From the NCBI GenBank assembly GCA_934045075.1, contig OW203723.1:4666577-4730576 (forward strand): a stretch of 64,000 nt of DNA. Reading direction: 5' to 3'. Below the pieces are notes generated by a model. That model worked only from the letters and a program-made list of their open reading frames with translations, searched no databases and was not told the origin of the DNA. This DNA is from Yponomeuta sedellus. Lineage: Eukaryota; Arthropoda; Insecta; Lepidoptera; Yponomeutidae. Position 1 is the stretch's first letter, and every line of letters begins with the position of its first letter. Shown here in pieces: positions 52,701 through 55,700 of this stretch. A program made the translations under genes and the position numbers.

Positions 52701-55700
52701 GGCTGATTTTTCAATAGTCAGTTAACTTTTATCCGAGGAATAAAAATGGCGGTTTGACATAATTTTCATACATAAGCTGTCAAATCGCCATTTTTATTCC
52801 TCAGATAAAAGTTATCTGACTGTTGAAAATTCACCCCTAAATCACAAAACATTAGCGTATATTTCTTAATGATACTCATACATATTCAACGGGTCCAATT
52901 GCGGTTATTTCGCGATCGTTTCAGGCTTTTAAGTACGTGGAATCCAGGCTAAGCAGATAAATACAAATCACGCGCCTTATCATCGGACCTGGAGCTCTAT
53001 TTTTGAATCACTCGTATGAAATTGTATCGTCGAATACGACATAAGTCACACTCGTCTTCTAAGTCGCATGATCTCGTTTTTCCTTATTTTTGAATCCAAA
53101 TATCCATTAAGGATTAGATATGCTTCAAAATTATTTTTCTACACTGAAGATCACAATATTAACAATCTAAAACAGTTGTCAGGAGCAAATTCACATTTAT
53201 CGCTAGGTATCTGTGCGCAACACAGTACAAATTAACACAAATTTTGACAATTAATCTATCGATCGACATACGAGACGAGTGGTAAGGACCATTCGTTGCA
53301 GTCAAGTGATTCAAAAATACGGAATTTCGTATGTCGAGCGAAAATCAGTAGAATTCGAGCGCTCGACGCGAGACGAGTGATTCAAAAATAGAGCTCCAGA
53401 CCACCGGCCAGCTGCGAAAAAGTAAAAGTGACTACCCACAATAATTGACTGTACTCGGCAACTGCAACGCTGCCGATACATCGGGAATTAAAGTAATTAC
53501 GTTTTACCTAATAAATAATCGCAATTAGACCCGTTTAATATATAACTATGAAAAGAAGACATGCTTTTCATAAACGGGTCTTACAGAAAAAAATACTACT
53601 TTAATAGCCTCTACAATTATATTAAAAAACTTTTTGTGCAAGTTCCCCATCGTTTACCTACTAAAGCAATCGTCCCGTTTAATGTGGAACAGACTATGTG
53701 ACCGTTACCTTCTCGTCGCCCAAAGCGGCATCGTATCCAGCGGAAACTATGGCCAGCTCGGGCGAGAACTGCAAGAGAGAGAGAGAGGGCGCTATAGTAG
53801 AGAGGAGTTAGAGGGATGGGTTACCTCGGGACAGCCCACCGCCGCATCGTAGCCCGCTGACACGATGACCAGTTGCGGTTGGAACTGCGGGAGAATTTTA
53901 CGTTAATATTACACTTAGTTTTTTTGGTGCTGACCCCGCAAACGTTGTTTCACCACATAAATTATCCCGAGCCCTGTTGTCAGGCCTTATAATTTTTATA
54001 ACATCATAAAAATAGGTTGGATTGGAAGGAGTTCAATATCAAACACTGGATACTTTTTTATATGAGATATAATTTCGTAATTTTGTCGGAGGAGTCCGAC
54101 TAATTAACTCGTTATGTTGGACCAAACATAATTTTGATTTTAATTGTTATTCACTCATTCACTTCGAAGTGTTCTCGAAGTGAATGAGTGAGTAACAATT
54201 GTTAAAGTGTTCGCTATTTATCTATCTATTTTCAGCCCTCAACAGCTGTAATTCGAAGCGGCCATCTTGTAATCCAATCATCTGATAGGTCATTGGTAGT
54301 AGCAGCTGGTGCCAAATAGCCAGGTAATCCCCGACAGTCATCCCGGTATTGCCGCACATTGCAAGTGCGGCTGACGTCGTGACCACAGTCCACGTAGTGG
54401 AAGTCAAACGTAAGTACATAGCACATACCTCCCACACCTGAGCAGACTTTCGAGAGAGAGGGAGGGGCAGGTAGATATAGAAGGATATATAGAAGAAAGA
54501 AAGGGAGTCTTCCTGAGCTCAATCGATTAGTTCAAAAATGGTCGCATTTCAAACCTGCAACAATTGTACCGCAGAATTGAAAGCGGCCGTCTTGTAATCC
54601 ACTCATCTAATAGGTCATTGGCAGTAGAAGCTGGTGCCAAATAGCCAGGTAATCCCCGTCAGTCATCCTGATGTGGTTTAGCAGCACATTTCAGGTATAT
54701 ACAAGAAAGAAAGTCTTCCCTGAGCTCGATTAGCTCCAAAATGGTCACATTTCAGACCTGAAACAGCTGTACCGTAGAATTGGAAGAGGCCGTCTTGTAA
54801 GCCACTCACCTCATTGGCCATTGGTAGTTGCAGCTGGTGCCAAATAGCCAGATAATCCCCGTCAGTCGTCCTGATTTTGTTTAGCGGTACATTTCAGGTA
54901 CATGAGTCATCCCAAGCTCAATCGATTAGTTCCAAAATGGTCGCATTTGAACCTGCAACAGCTGTACCGCAGAATTGGAAGCGGCCGTCTTGTAAGCCAC
55001 TCACCTCATTGGTCATTTGTAGTAGCAGCTGGTGCCAAATAGCCAGACCCCTTTAGTCATACTGATGTTGTTTAGCGGTACATTTCAAGAAAGAAAGAAT
55101 TCCCCAGCATAATCGATTAGTTCCAAAATGGTCGGATTTCAAACCTGCAACAACTGTACCGCAAAAGTGGAAGCGGCCGTCTTGTAAGCCACTCACCTCA
55201 TTGGTCATTTGTAGTAGCAGCTGGTGCCAAATAGTCAGACACCTTCAGTCATCCTGATGTTGTTTAGCGGTACATTTCAGGTATATAGAAGAAAGAAAGA
55301 GAGAATTCCCCCGCATAATCGATTAGTTCCAAAATGGTCGGATTTCAAACCTGCAACAGCTGTACCGCAAAAGCGGAAGCGGCTCTTGTAGCTACTCACC
55401 TCATTGGCCATTGGTAGCAGCAGCTGGTGCCAAATAGCCAGATAATCCCCGTCAGTCATCCCGGTGTTGTTTAGCGGCACGTTGCAGGTGCGACCGGCGC
55501 CACGGCCGCAGCCCACGTAGTGGAAGTTGGACTGCCGCAGGTTTGGCCAAAACGCTCCGTGCTCGTAGCGGTGGATCGAAAAGTAGAGGACACTGAGAAT
55601 CAGAAAGATAAAACGTGTTATTAGTTTGGGTCTTGGCTCTCAAAATTTGGGGAAGTTAGCTATTGGCTTTAGGCTGAGCTTGGCTGTTCCCATATGCTAA

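What the first reader, a model, noticed from the sequence alone, without database searches (positions are those of the whole stretch)
53709..53884. Intact tandem exon pair encoding alternative zinc-ligand loops of HDAC6 CD1
Two adjacent 60-nt exons, 56 bp apart, both keep CAG acceptors, GTAAC donors, phase 0/0 and the SAGYDAA motif whose Asp binds the catalytic zinc. They differ at about 8 of 20 residues, notably Gly-Asp-Glu-Lys against Gly-Cys-Pro-Glu after the motif. The short spacing would sterically discourage splicing both, so they may be mutually exclusive and give two CD1 enzymes with different substrate range. I know of no described alternative exon pair at this site in HDAC6.
Basis: partly seen in the sequence, partly recalled or inferred. 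Interest (0 to 1): 0.88.

Follow-up and report, generated by a model that had tools for sequence, protein, structure and literature searches.

The report
Splice-switched gatekeeper in arthropod HDAC6
A moth HDAC6 gene carries two adjacent, alternative copies of one active-site exon, found in the same order in several insects and an amphipod, that swap a negatively for a positively charged residue at the site known in vertebrate enzymes to choose the substrate.

Summary
On the minus strand, exon A (53884-53825) and exon B (53768-53709) are both 60 nt, phase 0/0, with intact splice sites and a 56-nt gap. They differ at 7 of 20 residues and 22 of 60 bases. The surrounding CD1 reads complete.

The pair is ancient. 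Ten protein models from other species carry both copies, always A then B: six moths and butterflies, a psyllid, a mayfly, a dragonfly, an amphipod. Eleven of 60 proteins from two exon-focused searches carry B alone, eight labelled 'isoform Xn'. In 11 of 11 pairs, window included, A ends in Glu and B in Lys.

That residue aligns with the CD1 gatekeeper (K330 zebrafish, K353 human) and HDAC10's E274, published as setting substrate preference. So exon choice most likely swaps gatekeeper charge: an HDAC10-like Glu form or a vertebrate-CD1-like Lys form. A review credits the arthropods it examined with HDAC6 but no HDAC10.

Exclusion is probably steric: the gap's only branch-point motif lies 16 nt from A's donor, and double inclusion stays in frame.

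Not shown: RNA junctions in this species, regulation, enzyme activity. Nine paper searches gave no description of the pair.

The parts
53825..53884 (-). Exon A, 60 nt, phase 0/0, [20 protein letters not shown]; gatekeeper Glu (GAG) is its last codon
   Evidence: gatekeeper column
53709..53768 (-). Exon B, 60 nt, phase 0/0, [20 protein letters not shown]; gatekeeper Lys (AAG) is its last codon
   Evidence: gatekeeper column
53769..53824 (-). 56-nt gap between A and B; only yUnAy motif is CTAAC with its A at position 17 (16 nt from A's donor, 39 nt before B), then a pyrimidine-rich stretch
55400..55592 (-). CD1 exon e4 ([16 protein letters not shown]...LLLPMANE), upstream splice partner of A or B, ends in phase 0
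52022..52215 (-). CD1 exon e6 ([14 protein letters not shown]...), downstream splice partner of A or B, starts in phase 0
56090..56158 (-). CD1 exon e3 ([24 protein letters not shown]), the other two zinc ligands
   Evidence: ligand roles recalled
56863..57065 (-). CD1 exon e2 ([11 protein letters not shown]...[22 protein letters not shown]...)
59806..59989 (-). CD1 exon e1 ([24 protein letters not shown]...)
60285..60415 (-). CD1 exon e0 ([44 protein letters not shown]); 5' end inferred from an AATAG acceptor

Best explanation
Exons A and B are an ancient tandem-duplicated, mutually exclusive exon pair of HDAC6. Each mRNA takes one copy, supplying the beta-strand and loop with the third zinc ligand (Asp of SAGYD) and, as the exon's last residue, the active-site gatekeeper. 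Choosing A gives CD1 a Glu gatekeeper, as in HDAC10. Choosing B gives it a Lys gatekeeper, as in vertebrate HDAC6 CD1. The switch therefore most likely changes which acetylated substrates CD1 accepts: cationic ones such as acetylpolyamines or basic contexts for A, and anionic C-terminal acetyl-lysine for B. Double inclusion is blocked mainly because the gap is 56 nt and B's likely branch point sits 16 nt from A's donor. Shown: anatomy, conservation, gatekeeper alignment, separate A-only and B-only proteins. Inferred: steric exclusion, regulation, substrate change.
For: CD1 reads complete with GT-AG, in-phase junctions. Both copies present, A before B, in ten other species' models; A copies have Cys18 and Glu20, B copies Asp18, Glu19 and Lys20 (11 of 11 pairs). 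A-A and B-B between species (15.8 and 15.3 of 20) exceed A-B within species (11.5 of 20), so the duplication predates the split of these orders. Of 60 proteins from the two exon-focused searches, 39 are A-only, 11 B-only, 9 both, 1 truncated; 8 of the 11 B-only carry an 'isoform Xn' label in the printed name, none of the 9 fused models does. Gatekeeper column: window A=E with five fish HDAC10; window B=K with human and zebrafish HDAC6 CD1. Gatekeeper literature: E274L turned HDAC10 from polyamine to lysine deacetylase; K330 gives CD1 its anionic preference (PMC5454378 passages). Short gap with a single branch motif 16 nt from the donor, compared with 25-41 nt in human OGDH and a proposed limit near 50 nt (PMC7969005 passages). 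In a predicted structure of a fused A+B model, A's strand folds and residues 358-376 (B is 357-376) fall below pLDDT 50; a B-only protein is confident through the exon and its top structural match is zebrafish CD1.
Against: No RNA evidence for this species. NCBI isoform labels are mainly predictions. Clustering at 90% hides A and B isoforms of one species. Ten fused models (nine in the two searches plus the amphipod's) could mean real double inclusion, although they look like gene-caller joins. The gap holds an earlier AG (positions 32-33) that B's branch point could use, giving a frameshift. Some insects have 50-60 nt introns (recalled), so 56 nt alone is not an absolute bar. [quoted passage not shown] Glu in this column is not special to HDAC10: a gastropod, a nematode and a millipede protein also have it, and a coral has Lys. 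The window's own A copy is somewhat divergent: 15 of 20 to Anticarsia and to Papilio xuthus, where the rest of CD1 is 81% and 78%.
Confidence: 0.74

Rival explanations
1. The pair is genuinely alternative and conserved, but the E/K difference does not change catalysis in vivo; the copies tune stability, regulation or a binding surface of a weak or non-catalytic CD1.
For: Window and the insect CD1 aligned lack HDAC10's two-residue L1 insertion, and the gatekeeper is described as necessary but not sufficient. A study of a fly disease model could not detect N8-acetylspermidine (PMC9310527 passages).
Against: Loop positions 18 and 20, the second being the gatekeeper, separate A from B in 11 of 11 pairs. 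The zinc-binding Asp is kept in all 22 copies of those pairs, which a non-catalytic domain would not need.
Confidence: 0.18
2. Both exons are normally spliced together, giving a 20-residue insertion.
For: Ten named models hold A and B in one protein; 60 nt keeps the frame.
Against: Fifty of 60 proteins have one copy only. None of the 9 fused models in that set carries an isoform label in its printed name. AlphaFold2 leaves the second copy below pLDDT 50. The 56-nt gap has its only branch motif 16 nt from the donor.
Confidence: 0.04
3. Exon A or B is recent local duplication debris in a repeat-prone intron.
For: The intron just upstream holds five extra tandem copies of the end of exon e4, none with the e4 frame intact, so the locus does duplicate and decay.
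Against: The A/B split predates the divergence of Lepidoptera, Hemiptera, Odonata, Ephemeroptera and Amphipoda. Window B is 19 of 20 identical to Phthorimaea B, where the rest of CD1 is 77% identical.
Confidence: 0.03

Closest known systems
HDAC6 catalytic domain 1 of vertebrates (zebrafish K330, human K353)
   Same: Matching domain with catalytic Asp in [SA]AG[FY]D; exon B puts Lys in the same gatekeeper column; top structural match of a B-only protein is zebrafish CD1
   Different: The vertebrate CD1 sequences aligned have Lys only; here Glu or Lys is supplied by alternative exons
HDAC10 polyamine deacetylase (zebrafish E274)
   Same: Exon A puts Glu in the gatekeeper column, in the same alignment as five fish HDAC10 proteins
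   Different: Window CD1 lacks the two-residue L1 insertion that forms HDAC10's constriction and belongs to a two-domain HDAC6 gene
OGDH exons 4a/4b (mutually exclusive, distant branch point)
   Same: Ancient exon duplication; choice changes an enzyme property; branch point too close to the upstream donor (PMC7969005 passages)
   Different: Different gene; OGDH toggles calcium sensitivity; its gap is 118-131 nt in birds and mammals, here 56 nt
Alpha-tropomyosin mutually exclusive exons (recalled; cited in the reference list of PMC7969005)
   Same: Exclusion enforced by branch-point position
   Different: Structural protein, not an active-site gatekeeper

Membership tests
HDAC6 (class IIb, two catalytic domains plus ZnF-UBP) | Two Hist_deacetyl domains and a zf-UBP in one gene | tested here: inconclusive
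   CD1 complete and CD2 exons read in the window; a stretch that looks like the start of the ZnF ([19 protein letters not shown]) is in the listing but was not scored. B-only homologues P0124 and P0154 each have two PF00850 stretches and one PF02148.
HDAC6 | Catalytic zinc ligands present in CD1 (DxH and the Asp of SAGYD) | tested here: met
   DWDVHHG in e3; Asp in both A and B and in all 20 aligned sequences
Mutually exclusive tandem exon pair | Homologous adjacent exons of equal length and phase | tested here: met
   60 and 60 nt, phase 0/0, 13 of 20 residues shared
Mutually exclusive tandem exon pair | Exactly one copy per transcript | tested here: inconclusive
   No RNA here; of 60 homologous proteins 50 have one copy, 9 both, 1 truncated
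Mutually exclusive tandem exon pair | Mechanism preventing double inclusion (steric, NMD or competing RNA structure) | tested here: inconclusive
   Sequence fits a steric bar; NMD would not be triggered by a 60-nt in-frame addition; inverted repeats in the flanking introns were not analysed as selector sequences
HDAC10 (polyamine deacetylase) | Glu gatekeeper | tested here: met
   Exon A only
HDAC10 (polyamine deacetylase) | Two-residue L1 insertion forming the PxCE 3-10 helix | tested here: not met
   Gap at that place in window and the insect CD1 that reach it, residues in all five fish HDAC10. Not filed as HDAC10.
HDAC10 (polyamine deacetylase) | N8-acetylspermidine deacetylase activity | not testable with these tools
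   needs enzyme assay

The most novel reading that the evidence does not exclude
In animals with HDAC6 as their only class IIb deacetylase, one gene does by alternative splicing what vertebrates do with two: the Glu-gatekeeper HDAC6 isoform serves as the missing acetylpolyamine deacetylase (or a dual polyamine/lysine enzyme, like zebrafish HDAC10 without its L1 helix), and the Lys-gatekeeper isoform does the vertebrate CD1 job on C-terminal acetyl-lysine. The exon choice is developmentally regulated and has been kept since before insects and malacostracan crustaceans split.
Probability: 0.25. Interest if true: 0.87.

Novelty: new member of a known kind. Interest (0 to 1): 0.68.

Why it matters
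CD1 of HDAC6 has had no clear function (recalled), and its published specificity rests largely on one gatekeeper residue. Nature appears to have run the gatekeeper swap inside one gene for hundreds of millions of years (age recalled), which gives a matched pair of natural enzymes differing in one 20-residue segment that ends at that site. It makes two open questions testable: what CD1 is for, and which enzyme deacetylates acetylpolyamines in insects if they lack HDAC10. It also warns that insect HDAC6 knockdowns and single-isoform constructs may mix two activities.

Tried and rejected
Rejected: double inclusion as the norm; decayed local duplicate; HDAC10 membership (L1 insertion absent).

Led nowhere: the window's own genome could not be searched, as the tool was unreachable each time, so other HDAC6 or HDAC10 genes in this genome were not checked. 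A paper I recalled that lists predicted Drosophila mutually exclusive exons is not held, so HDAC6 might be in its tables. Nine paper searches touched the gene, its gatekeeper or the kind of exon pair and no listed title or abstract start described this pair; a tenth was for the splicing mechanism. Listings were capped, so papers further down were not seen. Inverted repeats in the flanking introns look like mobile-element hairpins; I did not pursue them as splicing selectors. An approximate tree of 179 CD1-region sequences with the exon masked was used only loosely: one leaf list printed, no support values read, some labels and segments rough (for example P0148, placed beside CD2 sequences). 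dS came back as -1 and YN00 failed. The A and B classes are defined by the letters at the end of the exon, so E and K there are partly by definition; the listings show the raw segments.

Full report
What is there. The window holds a lepidopteran-like HDAC6 gene on the minus strand (best database match of its CD1 is a moth). CD1 can be read completely: e0 60415-60285, e1 59989-59806, e2 57065-56863, e3 56158-56090, e4 55592-55400, then exon A 53884-53825 and exon B 53768-53709, then e6 52215-52022. The junctions used here are GT-AG. e4 ends and e6 begins in phase 0, so A alone, B alone, both or neither all keep the frame. The CD1 model with B matches human and zebrafish HDAC6 over nearly its whole length.

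How old it is. The protein collection holds eukaryote entries. Ten named models carry both copies, in the order A then B: Phthorimaea, Anticarsia, Cydia, Papilio xuthus, Spodoptera exigua and Operophtera (Lepidoptera), Diaphorina (Hemiptera), Ephemera (Ephemeroptera), Ladona (Odonata) and Trinorchestia (Amphipoda) (orders of the last three checked, the others recalled). Nine join the copies directly; Operophtera has 13 residues between them. An eleventh such model, P0088, is labelled as a pitcher plant and looks like arthropod contamination; it was left out of the counts. Over the window and the ten species, A ends in Cys-x-Glu in 11 of 11 and B in Asp-Glu-Lys in 11 of 11. Mean identity between species is 15.8 of 20 for A and 15.3 for B, against 11.5 within species between A and B; with one species per order (five) the figures are 15.8, 15.1 and 12.2. 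A quick tree of the 22 exon segments puts all 11 A copies together (support 0.949). So the duplication predates these orders and was not homogenised.

Constraint on B. Eight of the ten species were compared with the window for exon against the rest of CD1 (Spodoptera exigua and Operophtera were not run). Window B is more alike than the rest of CD1 in seven: Phthorimaea 19 of 20 (rest 77%), Anticarsia 17 (81%), Cydia 17 (80%), Ladona 16 (61%), Trinorchestia 14 (59%), Ephemera 14 (57%), Diaphorina 13 (60%). The exception is Papilio xuthus, 14 of 20 against 78%. Window A is less alike than the rest in Anticarsia and Papilio xuthus (15 of 20 each), level in Cydia and above it in the other five.

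Single-copy proteins. The two exon-focused searches returned 51 and 26 proteins. Their union is 60: 39 with A only, 11 with B only, 9 with both and 1 truncated (P0169, which begins inside a B-like exon). B-only: Danaus X2, Aphomia, Arctopsyche X4 (Trichoptera), Lutzomyia X4, Vanessa X3, Trichoplusia X2, Aricia X2, Cacopsylla (Hemiptera), Loxostege, Contarinia X2 (Diptera) and Galleria X2; eight of these eleven bear an isoform label. From the first search (120 listed of 7959 matches) further B-type pieces are P0010 (environmental, 3070-base contig, open across the CD1 exon borders and so probably a transcript), Anopheles P0074 and Blattella P0118. Close relatives (recalled) differ in which form represents them, for example Galleria and Aphomia B against Achroia A. 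That is what one would expect if each species has both and the 90% clustering keeps one. I could not see both separate isoforms of one species. Seven Hymenoptera entries that I recognised by genus, the two named thrips, Drosophila ironensis, Oryctes and the millipede Chamberlinius showed A only; absence of B there is not established. The crab Portunus has a Lys-type copy (GDSK), and the bivalve Solemya has GDYK where two gastropods have GCPE, so the history outside insects is open.

What the switch changes. In an alignment of 20 sequences the last residue of the exon falls in the gatekeeper column: Glu in window A and in all five fish HDAC10, Lys in window B and in human and zebrafish CD1, Leu in human CD2. 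Glu is also found there in a gastropod, a nematode and a millipede, and Lys in a coral, so Glu may simply be the older protostome state and B the newer Lys form. PMC5454378 (passages seen) states that K330 gives zebrafish CD1 its preference for an anionic substrate, that E274L turned HDAC10 from a polyamine into a lysine deacetylase, and that HDAC10 also uses a two-residue L1 insertion; removing that helix gave a bifunctional enzyme. PMC9860109 and PMC10157890 (passages) agree on K330/K353. Window CD1 lacks the L1 insertion. The nearest vertebrate analogue of the A form is therefore the helix-less HDAC10, and I predict dual or relaxed activity rather than a pure polyamine enzyme. A review (PMC7288346 passages) gives Drosophila five HDAC genes with one in class IIb and says the arthropods it looked at share HDAC1/3/4/6/11 orthologues. 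An arthropod HDAC6 that can wear either gatekeeper would thus cover chemistry that vertebrates split between two genes. This last step is inference.

How one copy is chosen. The gap is 56 nt. Its only yUnAy motif is CTAAC with the adenine at position 17, i.e. 16 nt after A's donor and 39 nt before B, followed by a pyrimidine-rich stretch; the only such motif in the 76 nt before A is TTAAC, 18 nt before the exon. In human OGDH such branch points lie 25-41 nt from the donor and enforce exclusion; a steric limit near 50 nt is quoted there (PMC7969005 passages). By the same logic A-to-B splicing should fail here. Against a simple reading, an AG at positions 32-33 of the gap lies between that branch point and B, and short introns are tolerated in some insects (recalled). 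Double inclusion would be in frame and so would not call in nonsense-mediated decay. AlphaFold2 on the fused Phthorimaea model (mean pLDDT 80.6) folds the strand of exon A (residues 341-347) with confidence and leaves residues 358-376, almost exactly exon B (357-376), below 50; the loop end of A is itself weaker (block 351-360 mean 63). The B-only P0010 model (mean 82.0) has block means of 95, 85 and 85 across the exon, and its top match is zebrafish HDAC6 CD1 (45% identity), with HDAC10 structures close behind at 48% identity. The models rest on 32 and 34 sequences.

Local contrast. In the intron before A there are five extra tandem copies of the end of e4. In the e4 frame, three have length changes of 4 or 5 nt and the other two have stops; two of the five have lost the donor GT. 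These show what apparently unselected copies look like in this gene. A and B keep frame, splice sites and diagnostic residues.

Novelty. Nine searches of the open-access library (listings only, except the passages named above) gave no account of an HDAC6 exon pair in arthropods. A Drosophila genome-wide list that I recall is not held, and a related database paper does not contain the word HDAC in its main text. The isoforms themselves already sit in public annotation. The kind of thing, a mutually exclusive exon pair, is known. This member, which swaps the charge of an enzyme's published specificity gatekeeper, I believe to be undescribed.

Check against calls. None of these changed my odds.

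Noticed in passing
window 54272-55286: Five extra decayed tandem copies of the last ~90 nt of exon e4, none with the e4 reading frame intact, two without the donor GT.
   Followed up: partly
window 52989-53399: MITE-like element in the intron after exon B: 27-nt perfect inverted repeats at 52989-53015 and 53373-53399.
   Followed up: no
window 52694-52843, 54142-54200 and 52504-52568: Strong intronic hairpins (66-, 26- and 30-nt arms) on either side of the exon pair, probably mobile-element remnants.
   Followed up: no
protein P0088: Entry labelled Sarracenia purpurea encodes an arthropod-like HDAC6 piece with fused A and B exons; probably contamination.
   Followed up: partly
proteins P0026, P0047, P0068, P0099: Molluscs show both Lys-type (Solemya GDYK) and Glu-type (gastropod GCPE) CD1 gatekeepers, and one Elysia model departs right after the end of this exon; a similar pair may exist outside arthropods.
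   Followed up: no
window 60734-60484 and 52424-52246: Two stretches translating to similar peptides (NCDPQP..., GI[IM]GIT) lie near CD1 exons, probably one repeat family (listing).
   Followed up: no
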